DNA from: Ornithinimicrobium pekingense DSM 21552
Lineage (GTDB): Bacteria; Actinomycetota; Actinomycetes; Actinomycetales; Dermatophilaceae
NCBI RefSeq assembly: GCF_000421185.1
Contig: NZ_ATWJ01000007.1
Coordinates: 372,001 to 436,000 of the forward strand
Direction: 5' to 3'
DNA: 64,000 nucleotides
Position 1 is the stretch's first letter; each line of letters starts with the position of its first letter. A program made the translations under genes and the position numbers. Below the pieces are notes generated by a model. It was given only the letters and a program-made list of their open reading frames with translations. It was not told where the DNA came from and searched no databases. Positions 4,501 through 42,379 of the stretch are shown here, one piece after another.

Positions 4501-5222
4501 GGGCGGCCGCGGGAGTCCGCGGCGACCTGACCCACGGACTGGTGCAGGCGCTCGTGGTGGCGGACACCGCGGGCATGACTTATCGCTCGTGGCGCGACCG
4601 CGCTCGCGAGGCAGGCGCGCCCGTGCAAGTCATTGCGGACGAACAGCGCCTTGAAGAGCCGATCTTCAGCAACCACCGGCTTCGCATGAGCGTGAAAGCC
4701 GTACTGCAGCAGGTGTACTTGGAACCGATCACCGAGGCGGTGAACACCCTAAAGCGCCTGATCGCGCAACGGCATGACCAGGGCGACCCCGACCCGGCGG
4801 ACCGGCTCGACCTCGGCGTCGCGCTCGCCGAAACAGCGGACTTCACCGCGGCGATCGAGGCGCTCGACAGCGCGACCTCGCGGTACCACGACCCCTCAGT
4901 CATGACGCGTGAGCGTGAACGCGATCCCCGTGCTGACGACCGCCTGAAGGAAGCTCACTACCAGTTCGGCCGCGTGCTGTACCAGAGCGGGACCGACTAC
5001 TCCAGGGCCGTGAGCGAGCTTGACCGGGCGGCGCAGCTCGACCCCGAGAACGGGCGCATCCGCTACTACCTCGGACAATCGATCCGGGAGATGGTCGAGC
5101 GCGAGACGCTCGCCAAAGCGACAGACGCCCTACATGCCTACTTGACGCTGGGCGCGCCGCTCGGCGACGAGGACAGGATCCGCGAGTTCCTCGCCGTGCG
5201 GCGCGCACGGCAGACGAAGTGA
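1554..5222 (+). CDS. Triple caspase-fold protein with TPR-like repeats: one active caspase, two pseudocaspases
   Basis: A predicted cytosolic protein of 1,222 residues with three consecutive caspase-like (peptidase C14) domains. Domain 1 (about 30-290) starts with RWAILVGISNYADP and has both catalytic residues: His112 in YFACHG and Cys165 in DTCHSA. Domain 2 (about 425-650, RRRALVIGIDTY) keeps the His (H504, YSGHAVG) but has His557 where the Cys belongs (IIDSHTRR). Domain 3 (about 775-1040, RRFALVVGVDRYQ) has lost both: Thr862 replaces His in YFAGTG, and Arg910 replaces Cys in ILDSRF. TPR-like helical stretches lie between the domains and at the C-terminus (about 1060-1222). It overlaps the upstream gene by 4 bp and is followed directly by a CHAT protease gene. 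The architecture suggests one protease held with two scaffold or sensor pseudoproteases. Substrate and trigger are unknown. Confidence 0.85.
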   Translation: MTRAPGRKAPDRERNVGPLPVGKQYGAHANRWAILVGISNYADPRLNLRWANRDAQELYELIQTPAGGGFESERIQLLIDGEATTAAVTKALRSFLKKPAREDVVLLYFACHGTPDVDRPSITYLLTHDTDPDDVSGTALPMREIDLSLQENLLAEKVVLIADTCHSAAIGNRVGRRDGGDDATAINAYLEQVSRSKGGVALLTSAESNETAREGKEWGDGHGVFTHFLLRGLKGEADGYGRPKDGVVSVGELFDYVRDNVKRETGDQQHPAIGTTPFDRNLPMAITGGVNAREHLDLGTRLLTLARRLDERERYLAAAGRFTEALSLSNMARADLPQAAVGLGYALLGAGEIAGCLAAVQPLASQTPPPADATEALLLHGVGSAKVGDPDAARSSLRRFVELDPEHEYAGWARSYLGRPSRAVGRRRALVIGIDTYLHGGWGNLSGCVTDAEIMATELTRLAGFDAVTLTDSYATKLGVREAFIDLAEWTEPDDTVIVHYSGHAVGDSEEASSDADELYLVVHDTTEAQPGITAQELHDWLTAIPSRHKTLIIDSHTRRAFMDLAQQGGDYNVLFASDSAQMAQETRIERDGFLVAAGLFTTALVSQLADSNPETLTLGELLDAAIRKIVEDRASVGSLAAQVPVLVGDRDELVFGAIDRHLWAFEFSLRRTYPRESHETLRAHLRRLPGGLDLSFAPLSLSFGCAFLAHGAYDDAVSVLAPLATKEGLRRREVLRLLSAARLGSGSPQDAAADITSLAGLVDDPLRATLEKQAAHITSARRFALVVGVDRYQHERMLQPQGAVEDARLFQTALTERCGFAAEDVVVLVDETATRAAIVDTFRALAERSRTDSTVFYFAGTGSRTLDGAPTIVSANGRTGDVPDITLAELDAIARSCDAQNLVTILDSRFTASSETGSRSAFGGTGDGSGLRALLPLSPDAVGPHAAGVSPVTLINEMGLGGAGSRSYQGSEIEREHDAVLGAAAGVRGDLTHGLVQALVVADTAGMTYRSWRDRAREAGAPVQVIADEQRLEEPIFSNHRLRMSVKAVLQQVYLEPITEAVNTLKRLIAQRHDQGDPDPADRLDLGVALAETADFTAAIEALDSATSRYHDPSVMTRERERDPRADDRLKEAHYQFGRVLYQSGTDYSRAVSELDRAAQLDPENGRIRYYLGQSIREMVERETLAKATDALHAYLTLGAPLGDEDRIREFLAVRRARQTK

Positions 5223-11467: not shown

Positions 11468-12022
11468 CTACGACGAAGATGCGAGCCCGCGCAGGCCTGT
11501 GATCGCTTCGGCTGTAGTCATGACGCGGGCGAACTCCCCGTCCAGGCTTGCGAGGGCAGTCCGGTGCATCGTCTCGGCGTCGAAGCCGGCCCGGGCGTGG
11601 GTCGCAGTGGCGTCTGCGACGAACCATGTCTCAAACCCGAGGTTGCTGGCCATTCGGGCCGTCGTTGAGCAGCAGTGGTCGGTTGTCAGGCCGACGATGA
11701 CGACGTGGTCGGCCTCTGCGTTCCGCAGATGCTTCTGGAGGCCGGTGCCGATGAACGCGCTGTTGACCCGCTTGTCGAGGACCATCTCGCCCGGTAACGG
11801 TCGGGCTTCTGGCTTGAACTCGAATGCTGCTGTGCCGCGGCGGAAAAGCCCGGCGGGCGAGGCGCTTTCGTGGCGCACGTGTACGACGGGTGCGCCGAGC
11901 TCCCGCCATACGGCCAAGAGCTCACCAACGTGGGTCTCGGCATCAGGGTTGTTGCGTTCACCCCACGCGGAGTCGTCGAAAGCCTGCTGCACGTCGATCA
12001 CGAGCAGGGTTGGAAGCGGCAC
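11468..12022 (-). CDS. Isochorismatase-family cysteine hydrolase
   Basis: A protein of 184 residues from GTG 12022 (VPLPTLLVIDVQQAF). The family's catalytic triad is visible: Asp in LLVIDVQ, Lys in VLDKRVNSAF and Cys in GLTTDHCCSTT. The family includes isochorismatase, nicotinamidase and N-carbamoylsarcosine amidase, and the exact substrate cannot be read from sequence. The open frame extends further upstream, but that part is low-complexity and has no family similarity, so the start was placed at the conserved beta strand. It stands alone, transcribed away from the LuxR region. It differs from the nicotinamidase gene at 58062. Confidence 0.85.
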   Translation of the reverse strand: MPLPTLLVIDVQQAFDDSAWGERNNPDAETHVGELLAVWRELGAPVVHVRHESASPAGLFRRGTAAFEFKPEARPLPGEMVLDKRVNSAFIGTGLQKHLRNAEADHVVIVGLTTDHCCSTTARMASNLGFETWFVADATATHARAGFDAETMHRTALASLDGEFARVMTTAEAITGLRGLASSS

Positions 12023-12186
12023 GTCCCTGATCGTACGTGGCGGCAGCACCAAGCAGTCGCGTTCTCGTTCATGGGCGGCTGTGTTCAGTTCTTCTCCGTG
12101 TGGCGGTAGGGGCGCGCCAGCAGGGTGTGGCGTGTTTTCGCCGAAGGAGCCGCGTGGGAGTTTGGTTCTGGGCGTGGGCGGGCGAA

Positions 12187-29625: not shown

Positions 29626-30879
29626 GTGGTGAGATCAGCCTCCGTCGCAGCACCACCCGCATCCCTCCGGCCCCGCACCGAACCCTCCCCGCTGGGCCGG
29701 CTGCTGCTGTTCGGGGCGCTCGTCGCGATCGGCCCGCTGACGATCGACATGTACCTCGCTGCCTTCCCGGCCGTCGTGGACGACCTGTCCACGACCGAGG
29801 CCACGGTGCAGCTGACCCTGACCGCGACCCTGGTCGGGCTCGCCACCGGCCAGCTCCTGATCGGGGCGTTGTCGGACTCCTTCGGCCGGCGCCGACCGTT
29901 GATCGCGTCGCTGATCCTCTACGTCCTGGTCTCGGCGGCGATCGCGGTCTCCTCCTCGATCGAGGTGCTGCTGCTCCTGCGCTTGGTGCAGGGCCTGGCC
30001 GGTGCGGCCGGGATGGTGCTGTCCCAGGCCATGGTCCGCGACCTCTACAGCGGCTCCCGGATGGCGACCTTCATCTCCCGGCTCTTCCTCGTGGTCGGCG
30101 TGGCTCCGATCCTGGCGCCCACGCTGGGCGCACAGTTCCTGATCTTCGGCAGCTGGCGGACCATCTTCTGGGCGCTAGGAGCCTTCGGGCTGCTGCTGGC
30201 GGTGCTGGCGGTCGTCTTCGTCAAGGAGACCCTGCCCCCGGAGCGACGGAGCCACTTCGGTCCGCGGACCCTGTGGGCCAGCTACCGGGTGCTGCTCTCG
30301 GACCGGCGCTACGTCGGTCTGGTCCTGACCGCGTGCACCGCGATGGGCTGCCTGTTCGCCTACATCTCCAGCGCGACCTTCGTCTTCCAGGGGCTGTACG
30401 GGATGACCACCCAGCAGTACGCCCTGGTCTTCGCCGCCGGCGCAGGGGCGCTGACCGTCACCAGCCAGGTCAACGGGTCTCTGGTGCGCACGGTGCACCC
30501 GGCCGCGGTGCTGCGGGTGGCGCTGCCCTCGATGCTGGGCATCGCCCTGGCCCTGCTCGCCGCCGCGCTGGTGGATCTCAGCGTATGGGCCATCGTCGGC
30601 GGCATTGTCCTGCTGATGGGCTCGGTGGGCTTCGTCATGCCGAACAGCCCGAGCATCGCGCTGGCCGACCACGGGGAGCGGGCCGGAGCGGCTGCCGCCC
30701 TGCTCGGGGCGGCAAACTTCGTCTTCGGCGCGCTCATCTCCCCGGTCAGCGGGCTGTTCGGGGTCGACTCGGCGGTGCCGATGGCGGCCATCATGGTCGT
30801 CTGCGCCGCGGCGTCGTGGTTCTTCTACACCGTGCTGGCCCGCCCGCACCACATCCTGCGGGACATGCCCTGGGAGTAA
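29626..30879 (+). CDS. Bcr/CflA-family MFS drug exporter
   Basis: A protein of 417 residues with about 12 hydrophobic segments. GPLTIDMYLAAFPAVVDDL in helix 1 is the Bcr/CflA signature, followed by motif A GALSDSFGRRRPLI and the conserved RLVQGLAGAAGMVLSQAMVRDLY. GTG 29626 starts the protein. It lies downstream of the YCII genes but 80 bp apart and need not share their promoter. Likely a drug or metabolite exporter. Confidence 0.92.
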   Translation: MVRSASVAAPPASLRPRTEPSPLGRLLLFGALVAIGPLTIDMYLAAFPAVVDDLSTTEATVQLTLTATLVGLATGQLLIGALSDSFGRRRPLIASLILYVLVSAAIAVSSSIEVLLLLRLVQGLAGAAGMVLSQAMVRDLYSGSRMATFISRLFLVVGVAPILAPTLGAQFLIFGSWRTIFWALGAFGLLLAVLAVVFVKETLPPERRSHFGPRTLWASYRVLLSDRRYVGLVLTACTAMGCLFAYISSATFVFQGLYGMTTQQYALVFAAGAGALTVTSQVNGSLVRTVHPAAVLRVALPSMLGIALALLAAALVDLSVWAIVGGIVLLMGSVGFVMPNSPSIALADHGERAGAAAALLGAANFVFGALISPVSGLFGVDSAVPMAAIMVVCAAASWFFYTVLARPHHILRDMPWE

Positions 30880-30967
30880 GCCCCCACCGGCGGGCGGGTG
30901 GGACCACGTGCCGGTGGCCTCAGCCTGATCACCTCGCGAGCGCGAAAAAGCGTGTGATCAGCCATCG

Positions 30968-31288
30968 ATGGTCGTAGTCGGTCTGGTCGTCGACCTCACC
31001 CCGATCGATCCGCTCCCGCCGTACGTCTGGTACCAAGACATGGCCGACCGGGTGAGCGATGAGTCCGCGGGACGCCGACTCACGCGAGCCATCGCAGGCA
31101 AAGGCGCCTTCCGGCGGTTCACGAACGCGCTGTACGAGGAGTTCCCCGAGCTCCTACCGGCCTGGCACGCCTTCCGAGAGGCCCGAGCCAACAGGCGAGC
31201 CGTCGAGTGGCTCGCGGATGAAGGCCTCGTCCCCGAGGACGACGCCGACCGGTACCGAGAGGACCACCCCGACCCCGACGTGCCCTGA
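30968..31288 (+). CDS. UPF0158-family protein, probably N-terminally truncated
   Basis: A protein of 106 residues. It carries the family core WYQDMADRVSDESAGRRLTRAIAGKGAFRRFTNALYEE followed by WHAFREARANRRAVEWLADEGL. Full-length UPF0158 proteins have about 40-50 more residues at the N-terminus, and no matching coding sequence is visible upstream of ATG 30968. It is therefore probably a shortened or decayed copy. Function unknown. Confidence 0.65.
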   Translation: MVVVGLVVDLTPIDPLPPYVWYQDMADRVSDESAGRRLTRAIAGKGAFRRFTNALYEEFPELLPAWHAFREARANRRAVEWLADEGLVPEDDADRYREDHPDPDVP

Positions 31289-31344
31289 CCACGGAGGTCG
31301 CTCAGCGCCCAGGACACGCACTCAGTTGCCGCGGGTCGCCCGCT

Positions 31345-31566
31345 TGTCAGATCCAGAAGTGGGCTGACCAGGCCGAGGCCGGGTATGACGTCGAGGAGCT
31401 CAAACGCCGCGGGCGAGGACGCCCCGGGCGCGGAGCCGAGCCGATGCAGGTGATCGCCGTGCGCCTCACGGCCGAGAAGATCTCGGCGCTGGACGCGTTC
31501 GCAGCGCGGGAGCACCTGTCACGCTCGGAGGCGATCCGACGAGCGCCTGCCGGCTACGCCGCGTGA
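31345..31566 (+). pseudogene. Ribbon-helix-helix (antitoxin-like) gene remnant
   Basis: This frame reads KWADQAEAGYDVEELKRRGRGRPG and then MQVIAVRLTAEKISALDAFAAREHLSRSEAIRRA, ending at TGA 31564. It is a C-terminal RHH domain with the RGRP linker typical of actinobacterial antitoxin-like proteins. No start codon or N-terminal part is visible upstream. ATG 31444 could yield a 40-residue RHH peptide. An overlapping GTG at 31562 opens a short frame (KVHLLETDVLIF) that might be a toxin remnant. The rest of 31289-31832 holds nothing recognisable. Confidence 0.5.
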
Positions 31567-31832
31567 AGGTCCACCTTCTGGAGACCGATGTGCTGATCTT
31601 CCGTAGCCAGCGAGGAGAGGGTCATGCACGCGATGCCGCCTCGTCGTCAGTACTGGGAACTTCTGCCCTGATCAACAAGCGGCTCTGCCGTCGGTCGCAA
31701 GGTGCGGGTTCGTGATCTCAACCCCCGGGGTCTCGGGACGGTAGTCTGCTCGAGTGGCCTTACCTGGCGGTGTCGGACTCTTGGTGCGGCTGGTAGGACG
31801 ATTGTTGCCGGTGCCCACTTTGGGGAGGGGGC

Positions 31833-33716
31833 GTGCCTGAGTACATCGCTCCCGGCGTGTACGTGGAGGAGATCAGTTCCGGGTCGCGGGCGGTCGAGAG
31901 CGTCGCGACGAGCACCGTTGGGATGGTTGGCGCCACCCAGTACGGACCCGTTCCCTATCCGGCCGACGTGTCCTTCCCGGTTGCCGGGGGTGGCGTGGTC
32001 CCTGCCCGTGCTCGGCTGCAGGGTGGACCTCATCTGGTGAGGAGTCTGGCCGAGTACGAGCGGCTCTACGGTGGGCTCGACATCCACGGGCAGCCGTGCC
32101 AGCTGGCGCTGGCCGCGCGTGGCTTCTTCGCCAACGGCGGAGACCGCTTGTTCGTGCAGCGCGTCTACCGATACCCGTTGACGAGCCCCGCCCAGGGAAG
32201 TACGGACGTCGCAGCGTCCTTCGCGAGCCTGGACCTGCTGACCGGCCCCACTGCACCGGTGCTGCAGTGGCGGGCACGCTGGCCCGGTTCGGTGGGGGAA
32301 CGCATCAGGGTGGTGGTCCGACTGAGACGCAGCGAGAACATCCTGGTCGACGGACACCTCACCGATGTCACGGCCGGCGCGGTCGTCGAGACAACCCCCC
32401 TCGCGCGTGGTCGTTCCTCCCCGATTCCGGACACGAGGGCACCGGTCCTGGGCAACGTCCGCCTCGTCGCCCGCAACGGCGCTGGCGAGCTCGGTTACGG
32501 TGACGGCGCCGGAGGCTTCACCCCGGTCGACCCCGGCGAGGCGGCGTTCCACCTGACCCTCGACGTCGAGGTCCACCTCGATGACCGAGTCGACACCCGC
32601 ACCGGCATCGAGCTCGGCCGCGACCACCCCCGTTCCATCTTCACGGCCTTCTCCCTGGAGGATCCTGCGGACAGGGACTGTCTCGTCTGGCTGCACCAGC
32701 CGCCACCCACCAGCGCGGCACCCAGCGTCGGTGAGCTGCTGGCCGCTCTTCTCACGCTGCGGGACGGCGCCTACCTGAGTGGGGGCGGTGATGGCGACCC
32801 GCCCACCGGTGGCGACCTCCGGGGTAGGCCCGTGGACCCTGATGATGACCTGCTGCCCCCGCTCGGCCTGGGCGCCATGGAGACCGAGGGCGAGATCGCC
32901 CTCATGGCGATGCCGGACACCGTCAACCTGTCACGGTCTGCCCAGTCCGATGCCGTGGCAGGCCTGATCAGCCACTGCGAGCGGATGCGCCACCGATTCG
33001 CCATCGTGGACCCTCCCAAGGACTGTTCCCATTCTGAGGTGCTGGCCTTCCGGGAAGAGTTCGACACCTCACATGCCGCCCTGTACTACCCGTGGCTGCA
33101 GATCGTCGACCCCATCCTCGTCTCCTCCCCCGGGACCTCGCCGCCTGCTCTCGACCTGCCCCCGTCGGGATACGTCGCAGGTGTCTACGCCCGCACGGAC
33201 AGGGACCGTGGCGTCCACAAGGCACCGGCCAACCAGAACCTGCTAGGCGTCACCGGGTTCGTCAGCACGCTCACGGACACCCATGGGGAAGCGCTCAATC
33301 CCGTCGGCGTCAACGTCCTGCGCTCCATTGACGGACTGGGGGCCAGGGTGTGGGGAGCACGCACCATGTCCTCAAACCCGGAGTTGAAGTACGTCAACGT
33401 CCGCCGCCTGCTCACCTACATCCAAGCCTCCGTCGAGCAGTCCACCCACTGGGTCCTTTTCGAACCCAACAACGAGCGGTTGTGGGGCTACATCCGGCAG
33501 AGCGTCGAAGGCTTCCTTATGGCCCTCTGGCGCTCCCGGGCGTTAGCGGGCCCAGACTCTCAGCAGGCGTACTTCGTGCGCTGCGACCGCACGACCATGA
33601 CGCAGGACGACCTGGACAACGACCGACTCGTCTGCCTCATCGGGGTTGCCCCGGTCAAGCCCGCCGAGTTCATCATCTTCCGAATGCAGCAGCGAACCGC
33701 AGCCGCACCCCCCTGA
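31833..33716 (+). CDS. Contractile tail sheath protein (phage tail / extracellular contractile injection system type)
   Basis: A protein of 627 residues. The N-terminus PEYIAPGVYVEEISSGSRAV followed by TSTVGMVGATQYGP is the classic sheath start. The C-terminal sheath domain (about 490-620) includes VNVRRLLTYIQASVEQSTHWVLFEPN, then LWGYIRQSVEGFLMALWRSRAL and AYFVRCDRTTMTQDDLDNDRLVCLIGVAPVKPAEFIIF. The middle probably holds the surface insertion domains. GTG 31833 follows GGGGAGGGGG. No tube, baseplate, spike, ATPase or cap gene lies in the window, so the gene is isolated although its frame is intact. It may be an orphan eCIS component or an island remnant. Confidence 0.92.
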   Translation: MPEYIAPGVYVEEISSGSRAVESVATSTVGMVGATQYGPVPYPADVSFPVAGGGVVPARARLQGGPHLVRSLAEYERLYGGLDIHGQPCQLALAARGFFANGGDRLFVQRVYRYPLTSPAQGSTDVAASFASLDLLTGPTAPVLQWRARWPGSVGERIRVVVRLRRSENILVDGHLTDVTAGAVVETTPLARGRSSPIPDTRAPVLGNVRLVARNGAGELGYGDGAGGFTPVDPGEAAFHLTLDVEVHLDDRVDTRTGIELGRDHPRSIFTAFSLEDPADRDCLVWLHQPPPTSAAPSVGELLAALLTLRDGAYLSGGGDGDPPTGGDLRGRPVDPDDDLLPPLGLGAMETEGEIALMAMPDTVNLSRSAQSDAVAGLISHCERMRHRFAIVDPPKDCSHSEVLAFREEFDTSHAALYYPWLQIVDPILVSSPGTSPPALDLPPSGYVAGVYARTDRDRGVHKAPANQNLLGVTGFVSTLTDTHGEALNPVGVNVLRSIDGLGARVWGARTMSSNPELKYVNVRRLLTYIQASVEQSTHWVLFEPNNERLWGYIRQSVEGFLMALWRSRALAGPDSQQAYFVRCDRTTMTQDDLDNDRLVCLIGVAPVKPAEFIIFRMQQRTAAAPP

Positions 33717-33971
33717 TCCTGATGCGAGCACCGAGAAGACCACGAGCGTGAGCTCGATGCCGAAGAAGGTGACGAAGAGACCTCGCGCAGCGAGGCCGCC
33801 CAGGCCGAGGAGCTGGCCGAGCACCGCGTCCACTCGGAAGCACAAGGCACCCACCGTCTGCATCGGCAACATTCGCAACGGCACCCGCCCCAAGAGGGCG
33901 CTGTGCCGTAGAGGGGTCGTCGGCGTGATCGTTCTCACGCTGCAGAGGGCTCCGGGCCTGCACCTTCGCAG
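33717..33971. other. Intergenic region, no gene supported
   Basis: The minus strand can encode a hydrophobic stretch (AVLGQLLGLGGLAARGLFVTFFGIELTLVVFSVLA) overlapping the end of the sheath gene. No start signal or family supports it. It might be a membrane-protein remnant. Confidence 0.35.
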
Positions 33972-34019: not shown

Positions 34020-35069
34020 GTGGCCCTTTTCGACATCCGCCCGGTCAGCACCACCCCGCCCGCGCAGGTCGCCGCGGCACTGGGCGCTGGCGTCGTGGCG
34101 TGGGTGGGTGCGTACTGGCTCAACGAACGGGTCTGGGACCGGGCCTTCGAGGGTCTGGGGATCGACCGGGGGACGCCGCTGGGGGGTGCGGTGCACTTCT
34201 TCCTCTACGACACCGCCAAGGTGCTGCTGCTCCTGGTGGGGATGATCTTCCTCATCGGGATGCTGCGCACCACCATCCGTCCCGAGACCGTGCGCACCTA
34301 CCTGCTGGACAAGCCGTTGCCGGTCGCTCTCGGTCTGGCCGCCCTGTTCGGGGCGATCACCCCGTTCTGCTCCTGTTCCTCGATCCCGTTGTTCATCGGC
34401 TTCGTCGCGGCCGGGGTGCCGCTTGCCGTGACGCTGACCTTCCTCATCGCGTCCCCGCTGGTCAACGAGGTCGCCGTCGTCATGCTCGGCGAGTCGTTCG
34501 GGTGGGGCCTGACCGCGGCATACGTCACCGCAGGACTGGGCCTGGCCATGGGTCTGGGCGCGGTCTTCGCGCGGATGGACCTGGACGACCAGGTGGCTGA
34601 CTTCGTCCGCAGCACCCCCACCTCACTTCTGCACGTCGGCGGGGCGAGGCCGACCCTGGCCGACCGGGTCCAGGCGGCCCGGCAGGAGACGGCCGAGATC
34701 GCGCGCCGGGTCTGGAAGTGGGTCATCCTGGGTGTGGCCGTCGGCGCGGGCATCCACGGGTGGGTGCCGGCGGAGACGCTGGCCACCTATGCCGGGCCGG
34801 ACAACCCGCTCGCCGTCCTGGTCGTCACCGTCGTCGCGGTGCCGCTGTACTCCAACGCCGCCGGAGTCATCCCGGTCGCCGAGGCCCTGTGGGTCAAGGG
34901 CATGGCGACCGGGACCGTCCTGTCCTTCATGATGGCCACCGTCGCCCTGTCGGTGCCGGAGTTCGTCCTCCTCAAGCAGGTCCTCAAGACTCGCCTCCTG
35001 GCCCTCTACTTCGGTTCGGTCGCCGCCGGGATCATGGCGATCGGCTTCGCGTTCAACCTCCTTGCCTGA
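34020..35069 (+). CDS. Permease of the DUF318/ArsP type
   Basis: A membrane protein of 349 residues with about 8-10 hydrophobic segments. The hallmark ITPFCSCSSIPLFIGFVAAGVPLAVTLTFLIASPLVNEVA contains the vicinal cysteines (CSC) of ArsP-like permeases, which export trivalent organoarsenicals. The second half repeats the pattern (VPLYSNAAGVIPVAEAL). GTG 34020 is the likely start. A small thioredoxin gene follows 20 bp downstream, a common pairing. An arsenic role is inferred from the neighbouring ars genes. Confidence 0.85.
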   Translation: MALFDIRPVSTTPPAQVAAALGAGVVAWVGAYWLNERVWDRAFEGLGIDRGTPLGGAVHFFLYDTAKVLLLLVGMIFLIGMLRTTIRPETVRTYLLDKPLPVALGLAALFGAITPFCSCSSIPLFIGFVAAGVPLAVTLTFLIASPLVNEVAVVMLGESFGWGLTAAYVTAGLGLAMGLGAVFARMDLDDQVADFVRSTPTSLLHVGGARPTLADRVQAARQETAEIARRVWKWVILGVAVGAGIHGWVPAETLATYAGPDNPLAVLVVTVVAVPLYSNAAGVIPVAEALWVKGMATGTVLSFMMATVALSVPEFVLLKQVLKTRLLALYFGSVAAGIMAIGFAFNLLA

Positions 35070-35089
35070 CCTCGAAAGGAAGCGCCGCC

Positions 35090-35323
35090 ATGCATATCAA
35101 GATCCTCGGCCCCGGTTGCCGCAACTGCGAGGCGCTGGAGAGGGAGACCCGCGCCGCGCTCGACCAGCTCGGCGTACAGGCCAGCATCGAGAAGGTCACC
35201 GCCTACCCCGACATCGCCGCATACGGGGTCATGTCCACCCCGGGGCTGGTCGTCGACGAGGACGTGCTGGTCTACGGACGCGTCCCCAGGCGCGACGAGA
35301 TCGCCCAGCTCCTGAGCCCCTGA
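35090..35323 (+). CDS. Small redox-active thioredoxin-fold protein
   Basis: A protein of 77 residues, MHIKILGPGCRNCEAL, with a CxxC at Cys10/Cys13, then IEKVTAYPDIAAYGVMSTPGLVVDEDVLVYGRVP, the cis-Pro loop of thioredoxin-like domains. GAAAGGA lies upstream of ATG 35090. It is usually co-encoded with DUF318 permeases and may reduce the permease or its substrate. Its 3' end overlaps the convergent MFS gene by 52 bp. Confidence 0.9.
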   Translation: MHIKILGPGCRNCEALERETRAALDQLGVQASIEKVTAYPDIAAYGVMSTPGLVVDEDVLVYGRVPRRDEIAQLLSP

Positions 35324-36654
35324 CGCGCCGGCTTCGCCAGTCCGGAGAGCGCTGGCCGTGCGTCGTCCTGGGCGCTGACGGGTGTGCGGGAGCGGCCTGC
35401 TGAGGCGAGGGCGAGGGCGGCGGCCACGGCACAGGCCGCCACGGCGGCGAACATCGGCGCGTAGCCGGCGACCGAGATGATGCTGCCTGCGGTGACCGGG
35501 GCGGCGACCCGTCCCACGGTCGCGACGAGAACTTGTCGTCCGGAGGTGGAGGCGAAGGCGCGGCGGGGGACGAGCTCCCCGAGCAGGGCGGCGCGCGCGA
35601 TGGTCATCACCCCGAACCCGGACCCGAACAGCAGCACGAACAGCACCACGCCCCCGGTGCCGGGCACGGTCAGAAGTACCAGGACGCCCAGGGCCTGGCC
35701 GCCGACGATCAGGGAGGCGGTCGCCGCGAGGCCGAGGCGCTGTGCGACGCCGGTGAAGACCAGTCGGCCGGTGACGGACATGACCCCGAGCGAACCGGCG
35801 GCCGTGGCGGCTCGCATCCCGGACATGCCCGCCTGGACCAGGTATCCGACGAGGTGGACCGCGACCACGGTGACGGCGATGGTGTGCATGAGGTGGGCGA
35901 ACGTCAGCCGTCGCACCGCAACCGCCACGACGGGGCCGGCGGGGGACGAGGACCCGTCGTGGCCTCCGGTGGGCTCGGAGACGTGCTCAGGGCAGCGCAG
36001 GGTCCCGTCGGGGCTGAGGCCGTGGTCCGCCGGGGCACGCCGGAGAACCACGGCGTGCGGGATGGCGCAGGCACCGACCAGGCCCGCGAGGACCAGAAGG
36101 GCCCCGCGCCAGCCCAGGCGGTCCACCAGTGCCTGGGCGAGCGGGAGGAAGATCGTGGAGGAGAACCCTGCCACCACGGTCATGGTCAGCAGGGCGGCAC
36201 GGCGGCGCCGGTGGAACCAGGTGTTGATCACGGCGAACGCCGGCTCGTAGAGCACCAGGGCGCTGGCTACACCGATGACCACGAACGCGGCGTACAGCTG
36301 CGGCACGGTGCGGGCCTGGGACCAGGCCAGCACACCGGCCCCTGCCACGATGCTGCCGCCGGTCATGACCATCCGGGCGCCGTGCCGGTCGACGTAGCGG
36401 CCGACCGCAGGGGCGGCTGCCCCGCTGACGGCGATGCCGAGGGAGAGCGCCCCGGAGATGACGGCCGTGCTGGCACCGAGCTCGGCGCGCATGGGCGCGA
36501 CCATCACGGCGAAGCAGTAGTAGAGCGCGGCGTAGCTGACCGTCTCGGTCACTGCCAGAACCCGCACCACGCGCCAGCCGGGGAACGCGGTGCGCCGCCG
36601 CTGCCGGGGAGCGGCGGCGCGTGGCAGGGCAGACGTCACGCGCCGGTGCAGCAC
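35272..36654 (-). CDS. MFS transporter of the ars region
   Basis: A protein of 460 residues with about 12 hydrophobic segments, starting after a basic N-terminus (MLHRRVTSALPRAA). Motif A-like GRYVDRHGARMVM follows, and the C-terminal half ends in a hydrophilic tail. It overlaps the upstream flavoprotein gene by 19 bp on the same strand, so the two form an operon divergent from arsR. Its substrate is unknown; an arsenical or metabolite exporter role follows from context only. Confidence 0.85.
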   Translation of the reverse strand: MLHRRVTSALPRAAAPRQRRRTAFPGWRVVRVLAVTETVSYAALYYCFAVMVAPMRAELGASTAVISGALSLGIAVSGAAAPAVGRYVDRHGARMVMTGGSIVAGAGVLAWSQARTVPQLYAAFVVIGVASALVLYEPAFAVINTWFHRRRRAALLTMTVVAGFSSTIFLPLAQALVDRLGWRGALLVLAGLVGACAIPHAVVLRRAPADHGLSPDGTLRCPEHVSEPTGGHDGSSSPAGPVVAVAVRRLTFAHLMHTIAVTVVAVHLVGYLVQAGMSGMRAATAAGSLGVMSVTGRLVFTGVAQRLGLAATASLIVGGQALGVLVLLTVPGTGGVVLFVLLFGSGFGVMTIARAALLGELVPRRAFASTSGRQVLVATVGRVAAPVTAGSIISVAGYAPMFAAVAACAVAAALALASAGRSRTPVSAQDDARPALSGLAKPARQGLRSWAISSRLGTRP

Positions 36655-38102
36655 CGGCCCGATCCGCCAGGGCTGGTGGTCACGAGCTCGGCCAGCAGGC
36701 CTCCACCACCGGCGCCGGTGGCGAAGCCGAGTGCCGGAACCCCGGCCGGTCGTTCGCGGTGCGCCTCGATCGGCACGTGCAGGTCCGAGGCCCCGGTCGA
36801 GGTTCCGCAGCAGCCGCCGGTGGCAGCGGTGTCCTGGCCCTTGTCGTCGACCGAGCAGACCCCGGTCTCGGGCAGGACGAGCTGGACCTCGTCGGCCGCC
36901 GCGAGGTCACCGGCGAGTGCCGCGACCACCGAGCGGACCTGCTCGTTGCCGGTGGTGATGAGGAAGGTGGGGGCGCGGCCGTAGGACTTCATCCCGACGA
37001 TGTACAGGCCGTCGTCGGGCTGGGCCAGGTCGTTGTGGCCGTGGGGTGGCACCGTGCCGCAGGAGTGGTACTGCGGGTCGACCAGCGGTGCGAGCCGGGT
37101 CGGGGCCTCCAGCGCCGGGTGCAGGTCCAGCTGGGTCTCGGCGAGCATGGCCAGGTCGGGCCGGAACCCGGTCGCCGCCGCGAGGTTGTGGATGCCCTCG
37201 AGGCTGAGCGGACCCTGGGCCGTCTGCCCCCGGACCGTCAGGGTGTCCTGCCCAGCCTCCAGCGCGGTGATCGAGAAGCCCGTGACCAGCTGCACGGCTC
37301 CGGAGTCCACGAGCGCGTGCAGGTCGGTGCCCAGCTGCCCGCGGGCGGGCAGCTGGTCGGCCGCCCCACCGCCGTAGACCTTCGCCGGCGACCCGCCGCG
37401 GACGGCCCAGACGATCTCGGTCCCGGGCTCCTGCTCGGCCAGGCGGGCCAGGTTCAGCAGCGTGTTGGCGGCGGAGTGCCCGGCGCCGACGACCAGTGTG
37501 CGGCGGCCGGCGAAGCGGGACCGGTCCCGGCCGAGGACGTCCGGCAGCGGTCCCACCAGGAAGTCTGCGGCCTCGTCCTCGCCGAGCGCGGGGAGACCCG
37601 ACGCGCCGAGAGGGTTGGGCTGGCCCCAGGTGCCGGAGGCGTCGATGACGGCACGGGCGTGCAGCTCTTCCACGGTTCCGTCACCGTCGCGCACGCGCAG
37701 CACGAACGGCCGGTCCGCCCGACCGATGCTGCGGGTCTTGTCCATCCCCGCCCGGGAGACGGCCAGCACCCGCGTCCCCATGCGCACCCGGGCGGCGAAC
37801 AGCTGGCCGAGCGGGCGCAGGTAGTGCTCGACCAGCTCCGCACCGGAGGGCGGGACCGGGGTGGAGGGGCGGGCCCAGCCGGTCGGCGCGAGCAGCTTCT
37901 CCGCCGTGGCGTCGACGATGTACTGCCACGGGGTGAAGGTGCGGATGTGGCCCCACTCGGAGACGGCGGCACCGACCTCGCCCCCGGCCTCGAGGACCAT
38001 GAACGGCAGTCCCCGGTCTGCCAGGTGTGCGGCGGCGGCCAGCCCCACCGGTCCGGCGCCGATGACGATGACGGGAAGGTCCTCACGAGTCGCGGTTGTC
38101 AT
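36636..38102 (-). CDS. Flavin-dependent monooxygenase-like protein of the ars cluster (ArsO-like)
   Basis: A protein of 488 residues with FAD motif VIVIGAGPVGLAAAAHLADRG, NADPH-type motif RRTLVVGAGHSAANTLLNLARLA, and DASGTWGQPN, resembling the ATG motif of flavoprotein monooxygenases. The C-terminal third has several cysteine clusters (GVCSVDD, GGCCGTST, RCCTGA) not needed for flavin chemistry, which could bind As(III). ATG 38102 follows AGGAGG on the minus strand. It is transcribed divergently from arsR, with ArsR-like operators between them. ArsO-like flavoproteins occur in many actinobacterial ars operons but their reaction is not well defined. Confidence 0.85.
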   Translation of the reverse strand: MTTATREDLPVIVIGAGPVGLAAAAHLADRGLPFMVLEAGGEVGAAVSEWGHIRTFTPWQYIVDATAEKLLAPTGWARPSTPVPPSGAELVEHYLRPLGQLFAARVRMGTRVLAVSRAGMDKTRSIGRADRPFVLRVRDGDGTVEELHARAVIDASGTWGQPNPLGASGLPALGEDEAADFLVGPLPDVLGRDRSRFAGRRTLVVGAGHSAANTLLNLARLAEQEPGTEIVWAVRGGSPAKVYGGGAADQLPARGQLGTDLHALVDSGAVQLVTGFSITALEAGQDTLTVRGQTAQGPLSLEGIHNLAAATGFRPDLAMLAETQLDLHPALEAPTRLAPLVDPQYHSCGTVPPHGHNDLAQPDDGLYIVGMKSYGRAPTFLITTGNEQVRSVVAALAGDLAAADEVQLVLPETGVCSVDDKGQDTAATGGCCGTSTGASDLHVPIEAHRERPAGVPALGFATGAGGGGLLAELVTTSPGGSGRCCTGA

Positions 38103-38147
38103 GATGATGTGCTGCCTCCTGGCGGCTCCGCCGGTCGATGCCTTAGT

Positions 38148-38200
38148 ATCGACGTTTGTCGATGGAGTGCATCGTGCACCCAATATCGATCGGTGTCAAT
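38148..38200. promoter_or_regulatory. Two ArsR-type operators in the divergent ars promoter region
   Basis: Site 1 (38148-38163) is ATCGAC-GTTT-GTCGAT, a perfect inverted repeat with a 4-bp spacer. Site 2 (38185-38200) is ATCGAT-CGGT-GTCAAT with the same spacing. They lie between the flavoprotein/MFS operon and arsR, so one repressor could control both directions. Confidence 0.75.
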
Positions 38201-38215
38201 AGAGGAGCGTGAGCC

Positions 38216-38584
38216 ATGTCTGTTCCCATCTCGGTCTCGCCCGTCGTCCCCGCCCAGCCGCAGGTGGCGCAGTGCTGCGCGCCGCTGCAGACGACGACGC
38301 TGGGCGCTCAGGAGGCCGCTGAGCTCGCCGCCCGGTTCGCGGCACTGGGCGACCCCGTGCGCCTGCGCCTTCTGAGCCTGCTGGCGACCAGCACCCACGG
38401 TGCCGTGTGCGCCTGCGACCTGGTCGAGCCGGTCGGCAAGAGCCAGCCCACGGTCAGCCACCACCTCAAGATCCTGCGCGAGGCGGGGCTGGTCACCAGC
38501 GAGCGGCGAGGCACCAACGTCTGGTATGCCGCCGTCCCGGCAGCCATCGAGTCCCTGCGCCAGACGCTGGCCGCAGGATCCTGA
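38216..38584 (+). CDS. arsR: ArsR-family As(III)-responsive repressor
   Basis: A protein of 122 residues with a winged helix-turn-helix (FAALGDPVRLRLLSLLA ... VGKSQPTVSHHLKILREAGLVTSERRGTNVWYAA). Cys20-Cys21 near the N-terminus and Cys65/Cys67 (GAVCACDLV) match the arrangement known from Corynebacterium glutamicum ArsR, where an N-terminal Cys pair and a Cys of the partner subunit bind As(III). GAGGAG lies upstream. It probably represses itself, acr3 and the divergent operon through the ATCGAY-N4-GTCRAT sites. Confidence 0.93.
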   Translation: MSVPISVSPVVPAQPQVAQCCAPLQTTTLGAQEAAELAARFAALGDPVRLRLLSLLATSTHGAVCACDLVEPVGKSQPTVSHHLKILREAGLVTSERRGTNVWYAAVPAAIESLRQTLAAGS

Positions 38585-38633
38585 CCGGGCGCCGGTGCCG
38601 GGCGCCGCGCGGGGAGCCAGGCACCCACGTCAG

Positions 38634-38649
38634 ATTGACATTCGTCTAT
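38634..38649. promoter_or_regulatory. Third ArsR-type operator, upstream of acr3
   Basis: ATTGAC-ATTC-GTCTAT has the same arms and spacing as the two sites near arsR, with two mismatches. It lies 50 bp before the acr3 start and suggests acr3 has its own controlled promoter. Confidence 0.65.
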
Positions 38650-38698
38650 GTGGAAGCCACGATGGCCGCATCGATCTTCGTCCAGAGATTGGATCACG

Positions 38699-39808
38699 AT
38701 GAGCAGGGCCACTCCCACGGCGCGCAACGAGGTCGCGAACCCGCCCGCCGCCCACCTGTCCACCACCGACAAGTACCTGCCCGTGTGGATCGGCGCGGCG
38801 ATGCTGGTGGGGCTGCTGCTGGGCCGGCTGGTCCCGGGGCTGGACTCCTGGCTGGGGGCGGTGGAGGTCGACGGCGTCTCACTGCCGATCGCCCTGGGCC
38901 TGCTGGTCATGATGTACCCGGTGCTGGCCAAGGTCCGCTACGACCGGCTCGACTCCGTGGTCGCCGACCGCCGGATGCTGCTCAGCTCCCTGGTGCTCAA
39001 CTGGGTCGTCGGTCCGGCGCTGATGTTCGCCCTGGCCTGGATCTTCCTGGCCGACCTGCCGGAGTACCGCACCGGGCTGATCATCGTCGGGCTGGCCCGG
39101 TGCATCGCGATGGTGATCATCTGGAACGACCTGGCCTGCGGCGACCGTGAGGCGGCCGCCGTGCTGGTGGCGCTCAACTCGGTCTTCCAGGTGATCGCCT
39201 TCGCCGGTCTGGGCTGGTTCTACCTGTCCGTGCTGCCCGGCTGGCTGGGCCTGGACCAGGCCGCGCTCGATGTCTCCGCCTGGCAGATCGCGAAGTCGGT
39301 GCTGATCTTCCTCGGGATCCCGCTGCTGGCAGGCTTCCTGTCGCGGGTGTGGGGGGAGAGGGTCAAGGGTCGCACCTGGTACGAGGAGCGCTTCATCCCT
39401 GTGGTCAGCCCGTGGGCGCTGCGCGGGCTGCTCTTCACGATCGTCCTGCTCTTCGCCCTGCAGGGGGACCGGATCACCTCCCAGCCGCTGGACGTGGCCC
39501 GCATGGCGGTGCCGCTGCTGCTCTACTTCGGCCTCATGTGGGGCGTCGGCTTCGCCCTCGGCAAGGCCCTGGGTATGTCGTACGCGCGCACCACCACCCT
39601 CGCGTTCACCGCGGCCGGCAACAACTTCGAGCTGGCCATCGCCGTCGCCATCGCCACCTTCGGGGTCACCTCCGGCCAGGCCCTCGCCGGGGTCGTCGGA
39701 CCGCTCATCGAGGTGCCCGTCCTGGTCGGCCTGGTCTACGTCTCCCTGGCCCTGCGCGACCGCTTCTTCTCCTCGGAGGTCCCCGCCGATGTCCGCTCCC
39801 ACCCCTGA
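38699..39808 (+). CDS. acr3: ACR3-family arsenite efflux permease
   Basis: A protein of 369 residues with about 10 hydrophobic segments. IIVGLARCIAMVIIWNDLACGD contains the conserved Cys of transmembrane helix 4 needed for As(III) transport. GNNFELAIAVAIATFGVTSGQALAGVVGPLIEVPVLVGLVYV contains the conserved Glu near helix 10. ATG 38699 (MSRATPT) is chosen; the ribosome binding site is weak. It overlaps arsC by 20 bp. It exports arsenite produced by the downstream reductases. Confidence 0.95.
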   Translation: MSRATPTARNEVANPPAAHLSTTDKYLPVWIGAAMLVGLLLGRLVPGLDSWLGAVEVDGVSLPIALGLLVMMYPVLAKVRYDRLDSVVADRRMLLSSLVLNWVVGPALMFALAWIFLADLPEYRTGLIIVGLARCIAMVIIWNDLACGDREAAAVLVALNSVFQVIAFAGLGWFYLSVLPGWLGLDQAALDVSAWQIAKSVLIFLGIPLLAGFLSRVWGERVKGRTWYEERFIPVVSPWALRGLLFTIVLLFALQGDRITSQPLDVARMAVPLLLYFGLMWGVGFALGKALGMSYARTTTLAFTAAGNNFELAIAVAIATFGVTSGQALAGVVGPLIEVPVLVGLVYVSLALRDRFFSSEVPADVRSHP

Positions 39809-40436
39809 GGCAGCCACGGGCGCCGGCGCGCACACCGACGCCGTGTCCCAGATCGTCGAGGACCTGGGCTACGCCTTCGAGAGCACGTTCACCGGTCAGG
39901 AGGTGCGCCGCGCGGTCGAGGTCGCCTGGTCCGAGCTCGCCGCGGTCTCGCGCATCCCGACCTACCTGCCGGTGCTGACCGCTCGCCTGGCCCGCCAGCG
40001 GCTCACCGCCGCCGCGCAGGCCGATGGCCGGATGGTCAAGACCGTGCCCGAGCTGCTGTTCGTGTGCGTCCACAACGCCGGCCGCTCCCAGATGGCCGCC
40101 GCCCTCGCCGCGCACCTGGCGCCGGGCAGGGTGCACGTACGCTCCGCCGGCTCGGCACCCATCGGCCAGATCAACCCCGTCGTGGTGCAGGTGCTCGCCG
40201 AGCGCGGGATCGACCTGCGTGAGGCGTTTCCCAAGCCCCTGGCCGACGACGTGGTCCACGCCGCCGACGTCATCGTCACCATGGGTTGCGGCGACGCCTG
40301 CCCCGTCCTGCCCGGGAAACGGTACGAGGACTGGGACGTGCCCGACCCGGCCGGACGGCCGGTCGAGGTCGTCCGTGACATCCGCGACCAGCTCCAGGCC
40401 CGCGTCACCGCCCTGCTGCGCGAGCTCGACCTGTGA
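39789..40436 (+). CDS. arsC: Arsenate reductase (LMW-phosphatase fold) with N-terminal helical extension
   Basis: A protein of 215 residues. Residues 1-80 are a helical extension (VSQIVEDLGYAFESTFTGQEVRRAV). Then comes the LMW-PTP-like domain with active-site loop CVHNAGRS (Cys93, Arg99), the MGCGDACPVLPGKRYEDWDVPDP block, and Asp in the DP motif. This is the actinobacterial arsenate reductase type, in C. glutamicum ArsC1/ArsC2 dependent on mycothiol and mycoredoxin. It is translationally coupled to acr3 and overlaps the next gene by 4 bp. Confidence 0.92.
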   Translation: MSAPTPEAATGAGAHTDAVSQIVEDLGYAFESTFTGQEVRRAVEVAWSELAAVSRIPTYLPVLTARLARQRLTAAAQADGRMVKTVPELLFVCVHNAGRSQMAAALAAHLAPGRVHVRSAGSAPIGQINPVVVQVLAERGIDLREAFPKPLADDVVHAADVIVTMGCGDACPVLPGKRYEDWDVPDPAGRPVEVVRDIRDQLQARVTALLRELDL

Positions 40437-40894
40437 CACCTCCTGCCCACGTCCCGTCCGGAGAGGCCGCCCCCGTGCCCGAGGTCCCCACGGTGCTGTT
40501 CGTCTGCGTCAAGAACGGCGGCAAGTCGCAGATGGCCGCCGCCCTCATGCGGCAGCGCCACCCAGGTGGGGTCCGGGTGCTGTCCGCGGGCACCAGGCCC
40601 GGAGCGGCGCTGAACGCCGAGTCGGTCGCGGCGCTGGAGGAGGTCGGCGCGAGCACCGCGGGCGAGCACCCCAAGCCGGTCGACCCCGCACTGGCCCAGG
40701 AGGCCGACCTCGTCGTCCTCCTGGGTGAGGAGGTCGAGCTCGAGACCGGCCCCACACCGGTCCAGCGGTGGGTCACCGACGAGCCGTCCCGCCGCGGGGT
40801 CGAGGGAGCCGACCGTATGCGGCTGGTGCGCGACGACATCGCCGCCCGGGTCGCCGCCCTGGGCGAGCAGCTGGGGCTGCGGCCGCAGGCATGA
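40433..40894 (+). CDS. Divergent ArsC-like protein (CX5K variant)
   Basis: A protein of 153 residues of the LMW-phosphatase fold. The active loop is CVKNGGKS, with Cys25 but Lys31 in place of the usual Arg. The characteristic MGCGD...CP block of the neighbouring ArsCs is replaced by VVLLGEEVELETG. It resembles the C. glutamicum ArsC1'-type monomeric reductase. It may be slower or act on another substrate. Overlaps at both ends (GTGA and ATGA) place it firmly in the ars operon. Confidence 0.8.
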   Translation: MTPPAHVPSGEAAPVPEVPTVLFVCVKNGGKSQMAAALMRQRHPGGVRVLSAGTRPGAALNAESVAALEEVGASTAGEHPKPVDPALAQEADLVVLLGEEVELETGPTPVQRWVTDEPSRRGVEGADRMRLVRDDIAARVAALGEQLGLRPQA

Positions 40895-41964
40895 CCGACC
40901 GCTCTGGGCGGCACGTCCGTGCACTGGTCGTCGGCGGCGGTCAGGCCGGGCTGGCGACCGCGTTCTACCTGCGCCGCCGGGGCGTCGAGCACGTCGTGCT
41001 CGACGACCAGGCCCGCCCCGGCGGGGCGTGGCTGCACACCTGGGACTCCCTGCGCCTCTTCTCACCGGCCGCCTACTCCTCCCTGCCCGGATGGCCCATG
41101 CCTCCGACGGCCAGTGACGACTACCCGGATGCTGCGCACGTGGTCGACTACCTCACGCGCTACGAGCAGCGCTACGACATACCGGTCCGACGAGGGGAGC
41201 GGGTCACCGCGGTCGAGCACGCCCAGCACGGCTTCACGGTGACGACCTCCCGTGGCACCTGGCAGGCCGAGGCCGTCCTGAACGCCACCGGCACCTGGTC
41301 CCGACCCTTCGTCCCCACCTGGCCCGGCGCCGAGGCGTTCGGCGGCGACCAGGTGCACTCCGCCCGCTACCGGTCGCCAGAGCGCTACGCCGGGCAGCGC
41401 GTGGTCGTCGTCGGCGGGGGCAACTCCGGAGCCCAGCTCGCGGCCGACCTGGCCCCCCACGCGCACGTGACCTGGTGCACCCTGCGCCCGCCGCGCTTCC
41501 TGCCCGACGACGTCGACGGCCGCGAGCTCTTCCGGGTGGCCACCCTGCGGGCCCGTGGCCAGGGCGAGGGCGTCGGCGGGCTCGGCGACATCGTCGCGGT
41601 GCCGCCGGTCCGTGCTGCCCGCGACGCCGGGCAGCTGCGGCGCACGCCGATGTTCGAGCGGTTCACCACCGGCGGCGTCGCCTGGGCCGACGGCACCACC
41701 CGGGAGGTCGACACGGTCATCTGGTGCACCGGTTTCCGGCCCGCGCTGGGTCACCTGTCCACGCTGCGGCTGCGCCGCACGAACGGGGTCCCGGCCACCG
41801 ACGGGCCGGTGGCAGAGGTCGACCCCCGCCTCGCCTTCGTGGGCTACGGCGACTGGTGCGGCCTGGCCTCGGCCACCCTGATCGGCGTCGGCCAGTGGGC
41901 TCGCCAGGCCGTCCACCGCGCCTTCCCCGAGGACCACGACACCACCCACCGACCGAGAGGCTGA
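40891..41964 (+). CDS. Second ars-cluster flavoprotein (ArsO-like NAD(P)/FAD oxidoreductase)
   Basis: A protein of 357 residues with FAD motif ALVVGGGQAGLATAFYLRRRG, then GGAWLHTWDSLRLFSPAAYSSLPGWPMP, NADPH motif RVVVVGGGNSGAQLAADLA, and VIWCTGFRPALGHL. This is the single-component flavin monooxygenase-like family found in actinobacterial ars operons. ATG 40891 overlaps the upstream stop (ATGA). It is clearly related in fold to the flavoprotein at 36636 but shorter, lacking the Cys-rich C-terminus. Confidence 0.9.
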   Translation: MTDRSGRHVRALVVGGGQAGLATAFYLRRRGVEHVVLDDQARPGGAWLHTWDSLRLFSPAAYSSLPGWPMPPTASDDYPDAAHVVDYLTRYEQRYDIPVRRGERVTAVEHAQHGFTVTTSRGTWQAEAVLNATGTWSRPFVPTWPGAEAFGGDQVHSARYRSPERYAGQRVVVVGGGNSGAQLAADLAPHAHVTWCTLRPPRFLPDDVDGRELFRVATLRARGQGEGVGGLGDIVAVPPVRAARDAGQLRRTPMFERFTTGGVAWADGTTREVDTVIWCTGFRPALGHLSTLRLRRTNGVPATDGPVAEVDPRLAFVGYGDWCGLASATLIGVGQWARQAVHRAFPEDHDTTHRPRG

Positions 41965-41968
41965 ACCC

Positions 41969-42379
41969 ATGTCCAACGCGCCCACCGTCCTGTTCGTCTG
42001 CGTCCACAACGCCGGCCGCTCACAGATGGCCGCCGCCTACCTGCAGCACCTGTCCGGCGGTGCCGTGGAGGTCCTCTCCGCCGGCTCCGCCCCCGCTGAC
42101 CAGGTCAACCCCGCCGCGGTCGCCGCCATGGCCGAGGACGGCATCGACCTGTCCGCCGGGCAGCCCAAGCTGCTCACCGACGCCGCCGTCCGCTCCTCCG
42201 ACGTCGTCATCACCATGGGCTGCGGCGACACCTGCCCGATCTACCCGGGCAAGCGCTACGAGGACTGGGAGCTGGAGGACCCGGCGGGCCAGGGCCTCGA
42301 GGGCGTGCGCCCGATCCGCGACGAGATCCGCCGACGGGTGGGCGAGCTCCTCGACTCGCTCGGCGTCGATCGTGCATGA
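41969..42379 (+). CDS. arsC: Arsenate reductase (LMW-phosphatase fold)
   Basis: A protein of 136 residues. The active loop is CVHNAGRS (Cys11, Arg17), followed by ITMGCGDTCPIYPGKRYEDWELEDPAG. It matches the catalytic part of the reductase at 39789 without the N-terminal extension. It starts 4 bp after the flavoprotein gene and is the last gene of the ars operon. Confidence 0.93.
   Translation: MSNAPTVLFVCVHNAGRSQMAAAYLQHLSGGAVEVLSAGSAPADQVNPAAVAAMAEDGIDLSAGQPKLLTDAAVRSSDVVITMGCGDTCPIYPGKRYEDWELEDPAGQGLEGVRPIRDEIRRRVGELLDSLGVDRA

What the first reader, a model, noticed from the sequence alone, without database searches (positions are those of the whole stretch)
31833..33716. Orphan contractile tail sheath gene
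A full-length 627-residue sheath protein is encoded without tube, baseplate, spike, ATPase or fibre genes in the surrounding 30 kb. An intact frame in isolation suggests either a split eCIS whose other parts are elsewhere or a sheath put to another use.
Basis: seen in the sequence. Interest (0 to 1): 0.6.

Follow-up and report, generated by a model that had tools for sequence, protein, structure and literature searches.

The report
Stranded contractile-injection sheath gene
A bacterium that already has an apparently complete gene cluster for a needle-firing particle also carries a lone, intact gene for the spring of a different such particle, sitting among wrecked mobile genes; it is most likely a stranded leftover, but a second lone spring gene in the same genome belongs to a lineage that lives without the rest of the machine in several related species.

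Summary
In detail: window 31833-33716 encodes a 627-residue contractile sheath (both Pfam sheath domains over cut-off), with no other CIS gene detected in the window. The split-eCIS reading fails: an apparently complete eCIS cluster with its own sheath lies about 37 kb upstream, and the only gp19 tube gene found in the genome belongs to it. The window sheath is of another lineage, best known from eCIS clusters in other phyla. It deviates at 6 of 67 conserved columns (working sheaths reach 7), but its flanks are debris: a truncated UPF0158 gene and a broken RHH gene pair upstream, a Mutator-family transposase fragment right after the stop, and a rearranged site. Best reading: stranded remnant of a lost eCIS, either recent or still selected. 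The more interesting by-product is a second lone sheath on contig C8, from an all-lone clade found in 17 of 31 genus genomes, 12 of which show no tube gene. These sheaths lost assembly residues, carry a P-loop-less AAA fragment or a cupin as tail, and evolve under purifying selection. The same AAA fragment also tails lone tube proteins and a hydrolase in same-family genomes. Function is untested.

The parts
31833..33716 (+). lone, full-length eCIS-type contractile sheath gene (627 aa)
   Evidence: Pfam PF04984 and PF17482 over cut-off; PDB sequence hits 9ezm, 8bky; keeps 61 of 67 columns conserved in cluster sheaths
29626..30879 (+). MFS transporter gene; left flank, DNA 92-96% identical in nine genus relatives (in two pieces in one of them)
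   Evidence: Pfam MFS_1; DNA matches; followed by other sequence in two relatives
30968..31288 (+). truncated UPF0158 gene (106 aa; 156 aa in copies L130 and L134)
   Evidence: Pfam here and on L130; copies
31348..31697 (+). broken copy of a two-gene module: CopG/RHH gene and following 80-aa gene
   Evidence: intact 82-aa and 80-aa pairs in L132 and L135; RHH_1 on the L127 copy; DNA matches in at least 12 genus genomes; toxin-antitoxin role inferred
33722..33902 (+). decayed 5' piece of a Mutator-family transposase gene; match begins 6 nt past the last base of the sheath stop
   Evidence: 434-aa copies in L126 and L128; Transposase_mut on the L126 copy; DNA matches
34020..35069 (+). ArsP-type permease gene, right neighbour, unrelated
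   Evidence: Pfam ArsP_1
11480..12056 (.). stretch with part of an isochorismatase gene that directly follows the MFS gene in two relatives: marks a rearrangement
   Evidence: L122, L125; Pfam Isochorismatase on 11468-11785

Best explanation
The gene is a stranded remnant of an extracellular contractile injection system of a lineage other than the resident one. Shown: it is a complete sheath of an eCIS lineage; in four cluster relatives looked at, two small genes precede the sheath and a tube follows; here these partners were not found, and both edges are truncated mobile or accessory genes at a rearranged site. Inferred: rearrangement or IS-associated deletion, here or before transfer, removed the rest of the cluster and left the sheath intact. 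If expressed, it would most simply make free or self-assembled sheath, with no tube of its own to drive.
For: Lineage: in a 74-row sheath tree it nests (SH-aLRT 99, 12 rows) among cluster sheaths of Pseudomonadota, Myxococcota, Thermodesulfobacteriota and same-family genomes, apart from the resident cluster sheath and the C8 sheath. In L058, L106, L109 and L056 the sheath follows genes of 189-206 aa and 245-304 aa and is followed by a tube; no trace of the second upstream gene or the tube beside this copy (best E 0.20). Flank debris. The MFS gene is followed by other sequence in 2 of 6 relatives fetched there. Apart from itself, no sheath of the 31 genus genomes matched at more than 46% identity, over about half its length at most. 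GC3 0.833 against 0.918 (SD 0.046) for 30 window genes over 600 nt.
Against: The frame is open and 61 of 67 conserved columns are kept, within the range of working sheaths. In a neutral simulation (400 runs each, substitutions only) 19% of frames stay open at 5% nucleotide change and 4% at 10%. So stranding is recent, or the gene is still under selection. The deletion is inferred; no intermediate was seen. A purine-rich stretch lies shortly before the GTG start. The promoter/terminator scan found none, but chance expectation was also near zero, so it says nothing.
Confidence: 0.6

Rival explanations
1. Accessory sheath of the resident eCIS: kept because its product replaces, mixes with, or limits the assembly of the cluster sheath, as some eCIS use several sheath paralogues.
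For: An apparently complete eCIS lies about 37 kb away; the window sheath keeps both termini and conserved core residues; solved eCIS have several sheath chains (molecule names Afp2/3/4 and Pvc2/3/4).
Against: Best local match to the resident sheath is 40% over 263 residues and it lies in another clade; in the loci with two sheaths listed these lie within one cluster, a gene or so apart; its flanks are debris.
Confidence: 0.2
2. Repurposed tubeless sheath: kept for a structural or scaffold role without any tube, as the C8-type lineage appears to be.
For: Lone sheaths recur: 28 of 74 tree rows, 6 changes between lone and cluster, at least 5 forced; lone relatives L063, L065, L069; a phage sheath protein self-assembles without partners (PMC6357053, abstract start).
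Against: Unlike the C8 lineage it shows no loss of conserved residues, no fused tail and no conservation across species; L063, L065 and L069 are much shorter (360-419 aa with script-chosen starts), and L069 has only 104 bases upstream in its contig.
Confidence: 0.15
3. Split eCIS: the other genes of this sheath's own machine are dispersed in the genome and still work together.
For: A lone spike-PAAR pair on contig C14 and a third sheath on C8.
Against: One gp19 tube and one CIS_tube found in the genome, both inside the resident cluster.
Confidence: 0.03

Closest known systems
eCIS sheath of the Candidatus Aquabacterium excrementipullorum cluster (L058)
   Same: 48% identity in A2 over full length, shared N-terminal insertion, both termini, C-terminal core
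   Different: followed by a tube, a second sheath, and spike and baseplate gene matches; here none
Halogeometricum borinquense sheath (9ezm) and Streptomyces coelicolor CIS sheath (8bky, 8bl4)
   Same: best PDB sequence hits and top Foldseek hits of a low-confidence model
   Different: those belong to working machines; the window gene has no machine of its own
Self-assembling phage polysheath (gp053 of phage FV3, PMC6357053; search listing only)
   Same: a sheath protein alone can form tubes
   Different: recombinant phage protein; not tested for this one
C8-type lone sheaths of the same genus (described here)
   Same: sheath without tube beside it
   Different: separate clade, lost conserved residues, AAA fragment or cupin tail

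Membership tests
Contractile sheath protein (Phage_sheath_1 / Phage_sheath_1C) | profile match over curated cut-off | tested here: met
   67.6 and 61.9 bits against 31.4 and 26.9
Contractile sheath protein (Phage_sheath_1 / Phage_sheath_1C) | N- and C-terminal segments for the interwoven handshake (passages of PMC8894135 and PMC6088184; assigning it to the PGVYVEE and PAEF motifs is mine) | tested here: met
   P7-Y10, E13 and P610-F613 present; V614 is I
Contractile sheath protein (Phage_sheath_1 / Phage_sheath_1C) | sheath fold | tested here: inconclusive
   AlphaFold2 model weak (pLDDT 57.6, pTM 0.58), though Foldseek ranks sheaths first
eCIS gene cluster (whole machine) | tube, spike, baseplate and AAA genes with the sheath | tested here: not met
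   none detected in the window; present in the separate C7 cluster with its own sheath
Pseudogene | disrupted frame or lost conserved residues | tested here: not met
   frame open; 6 of 67 conserved columns deviate; only the surroundings are decayed
Pseudogene | no transcription | not testable with these tools
   no expression data
Tubeless sheath lineage (C8 type) | membership of the all-lone clade | tested here: not met
   window sheath falls in a different clade

The most novel reading that the evidence does not exclude
In this actinomycete genus a contractile sheath has been domesticated as a stand-alone protein: the C8-type lineage lost assembly residues, is inherited in genomes without a detectable tube, is under purifying selection, and carries a P-loop-less AAA fragment (or a cupin) as tail. 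The same AAA fragment is found at the C-terminus of lone gp19 tube proteins in two same-family genomes and of an alpha/beta hydrolase in a third, so it may be a reusable tag derived from the eCIS ATPase. The window sheath would be a second, younger capture by the same cells.
Probability: 0.25. Interest if true: 0.65.

Novelty: new member of a known kind. Interest (0 to 1): 0.4.

Why it matters
For the window gene it corrects a natural misreading: a lone sheath here is not a scattered machine, because a cluster with its own sheath sits 37 kb away and the lone copy lies in gene debris. It also led to a recurrent, testable case of sheath genes without tubes: 12 of 20 sheath-bearing genomes in this genus show no tube gene, against 1 of 50 in a class-wide sample. 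If that lineage is functional, a force-generating shell protein has been reused for something other than injection.

Tried and rejected
Split eCIS: rejected on tube and CIS_tube counts. Orphan as the missing sheath of the resident cluster: rejected, the cluster has its own. Orphan as a member of the C8 lone clade: rejected by the tree. Remnants of the relatives' second upstream gene or tube beside the orphan: none (the first upstream gene was not tried). Promoter/terminator scan: uninformative. AlphaFold2 of the window sheath with 13 rows: low confidence, not used for residue-level claims. AAA tail searched in plasmids: 132 records matched; the annotated matches among the 30 listed are named AAA, ATPase or ATP-binding, the rest carry no annotation at the match; no fusion was looked for there.

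Control against a sheath-only bias: lone tubes also occur. In the family sample 8 of 25 tube genomes had no sheath match (one of them, G096, matches A1 only by its AAA tail). Regions around nine tube hits of these eight genomes (L140-L148) gave no tblastn hit to the three sheath queries at E 1e-2. In the class sample 8 of 57 tube genomes had no sheath match. So single CIS genes standing alone are a general pattern, not special to sheaths.

Limits of the label 'lone': it means no tblastn hit (E 1e-4) to four tube/baseplate-type queries of the resident cluster in the stretch held. 9 of the 28 lone tree rows have under 5 kb on at least one side (L069, L074, L075, L078, L079, L091, L098, L103, L117).

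Papers: searches listed no title or abstract start on tubeless sheath lineages or on sheath-AAA or sheath-cupin fusions; only open-licence PMC papers are held, no bioRxiv. Passages seen: PMC9230969, PMC8213781, PMC8894135, PMC6088184, PMC13277306. No paper was read whole.

Full report
OBSERVATION. Window 31833-33716 is an open frame of 627 codons that matches Phage_sheath_1 (residues 354-512) and Phage_sheath_1C (513-620) above the curated cut-offs, PHROG tail-sheath families and solved sheaths, best 9ezm and 8bky, which are Halogeometricum borinquense and Streptomyces coelicolor CIS sheaths (titles). It aligns end to end with cluster sheaths. tblastn with 18 proteins of the genome's own eCIS cluster plus the C8 sheath and the window sheath found nothing in the window but this locus.

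THE REST OF THE GENOME. The window is C7:372001-436000 of a 3.85-Mb, 15-contig genome; a profile search found three sheath places: this one; one in the gene C7:357893-359857, 654 aa; and one in C8:410346-411743, 465 aa, where the match is just under the family cut-off (gene coordinates). The second lies in a run of genes, C7:341373-366820, with AAA, eCIS_core, Pvc16_N, sheath, gp19 tube, CIS_tube, spike OB domain, PAAR, Baseplate_J and Tail_P2_I matches; several further genes have no Pfam match and the gp25-like one was not scanned, so 'complete' means the core set. It ends about 37 kb upstream of the lone sheath. One gp19 tube and one CIS_tube were found in the genome, both in that cluster. 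A second spike-domain hit is on C14, next to a PAAR gene and no other recognised CIS gene in the stretch read. A second, dispersed injection machine is therefore unlikely.

WHERE THE SHEATH COMES FROM. In a tree of 74 sheath rows (28 lone, 46 with other eCIS genes in the stretch held; 418 columns; quick search, SH-aLRT only) the window sheath joins L058 (Candidatus Aquabacterium excrementipullorum; 89) inside a 12-row set (99) of 8 cluster sheaths and 4 lone ones (window, L063, L065, L069). The resident cluster sheath and the C8 sheath lie elsewhere. In the four cluster relatives looked at (L058, L106, L109, L056) two genes of 189-206 and 245-304 aa precede the sheath and a tube follows. No trace of the second upstream gene or the tube was found here.

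THE SITE. DNA comparison with the 31 genomes of the genus, own included, and fetched copies shows: the MFS gene is 92-96% identical in nine relatives, up to about 30880-30959; 30985-31332 is a truncated copy of a UPF0158 gene (156 aa in L130 and L134); 31348-31697 is a broken copy of a CopG/RHH gene plus a following 80-aa gene that recurs in at least 12 genus genomes; and 33722-33902, beginning 6 nt past the sheath stop, is a decayed 5' piece of a Mutator-family transposase gene (434 aa in L126 and L128). In 2 of 6 relatives fetched at the MFS locus (L122, L125) the MFS gene is followed directly by sequence that lies at 11480-12056 in the window. The site is rearranged and full of gene debris. 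I infer that such events stranded the sheath; the event itself was not seen.

IS IT DECAYED? No. At columns conserved in at least 90% of 35 first-sheath cluster rows it deviates at 6 of 67; leave-one-out values for the cluster rows average 3.3% and reach 7 of 68. A neutral simulation leaves 19% of frames open after 5% nucleotide change and 4% after 10%, without indels. Stranding is therefore recent, or the gene is still selected. Its GC3 is about 1.9 SD below that of 30 window genes and its end branch (0.77) is longer than its sister's (0.31), compatible with foreign origin or faster change.

THE SECOND LONE SHEATH. The C8 sheath belongs to a clade of 16 rows, all lone (99; 95 with L121). tblastn of the 20 queries against about 20 kb on each side of it found only the sheath and its tail. 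With the copy in G131 that is frame-broken in this assembly (L105, not in the tree), the type is in 17 of 31 genus genomes. Of 20 genus genomes with a sheath match, 12 have no gp19 match, and all 12 carry this type; two of the 12 are 75% and 84% complete. In a class sample of 296 genomes, 50 have a sheath match and 1 of these (G376) has no tube match; queries differ (window protein in the genus, alignment A2 in the class), so the contrast is rough. In the family sample 4 of 21 sheath genomes have no tube match. C8-type rows deviate at 12-26 of 67 conserved columns; other lone rows range from 2 (L114) to 16 (L121), so loss of conserved residues is not a mark of all lone sheaths. Of the AAA-tailed rows only L101 keeps a clear PGVY-type N-terminus; of the three cupin-tailed rows L091 does, and L092 does if its longer start is used. 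Tails match AAA (PF00004, from profile position 25 or 29 on, so without the P-loop part; below the cut-off in the C8 copy, above it in L090) or Cupin_2 (L091, L104, L092). NG86 dN/dS over the sheath part is 0.32-0.44 in 11 pairs (ratios of values); over whole genes 0.37-0.42 in 4 pairs, against 0.04-0.39 for neighbouring genes: purifying, but weaker than for nearly all neighbours. Five copies (L095, L096, L098, L099, L100) stand near an Ohr-like/MarR-like gene pair (named by eye). The AlphaFold2 model (pTM 0.67) resembles S. coelicolor CIS sheaths, and a Vps4 AAA structure appears at rank 50. This fits a repurposed sheath, but no function was tested.

THE AAA TAIL ELSEWHERE. All three lack the P-loop part (profile starts 14-16) and keep the Walker B-like DEAD region; the resident AAA gene aligns with them (Walker names recalled). 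G016 also has an eCIS cluster elsewhere. Recurrence on three kinds of protein suggests a reusable module, but could also reflect repeated deletions that fuse a neighbouring gene to the ATPase gene.

CONTROL. Because I searched with sheaths, lone sheaths were bound to be noticed. Lone gp19 tubes also exist: 8 of 25 tube genomes in the family sample have no sheath match. In four genomes of one genus (L141, L142, L145, L147) a tube gene stands near a GroEL-like gene (GroEL by eye). Scattered single CIS genes are thus a general pattern in these bacteria, which favours a plain origin by loss for the window gene.

VERDICT. The window sheath is a real, intact, isolated eCIS sheath, most likely a stranded remnant (0.6). 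Accessory use with the resident eCIS (0.2) and a tubeless role (0.15) remain open; a split machine is nearly excluded (0.03). The by-product, a tubeless sheath lineage in the genus, deserves follow-up.

Noticed in passing
genome contig C8:410346-411743 (L003:1222-2619): Second lone sheath of the genome, fused to a P-loop-less AAA fragment; part of an all-lone clade in 17 of 31 genus genomes, 12 of them without a detectable tube.
   Followed up: yes
L144:9248-9940, L150:6816-7577, L151:8457-9743: The same P-loop-less AAA fragment as C-terminal tail of two lone gp19 tube proteins and of an alpha/beta hydrolase: possibly a reusable module.
   Followed up: partly
L091:6111-7571, L092:9286-10689, L104:9086-10549: Lone sheaths with a C-terminal Cupin_2 domain, over cut-off in all three.
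   Followed up: partly
genome contig C14:243947-244718 (L149:9448-10219): Lone spike-domain gene followed by a PAAR gene, no other recognised CIS gene in the stretch read.
   Followed up: partly
L141, L142, L145, L147 (genus g33): Single gp19-type tube genes near a GroEL-like gene in four genomes, without sheath matches.
   Followed up: partly
genome C7:370984-372999 (runs into the window) and window 1554-5222: Two caspase-domain (Peptidase_C14) genes between the eCIS cluster and the lone sheath; the second also has CHAT and TPR matches.
   Followed up: no
window 34020-42379: Arsenic-resistance-like neighbourhood: ArsP permease, and by eye an ArsR-like regulator, ACR3-like transporter and arsenate-reductase-like genes.
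   Followed up: no
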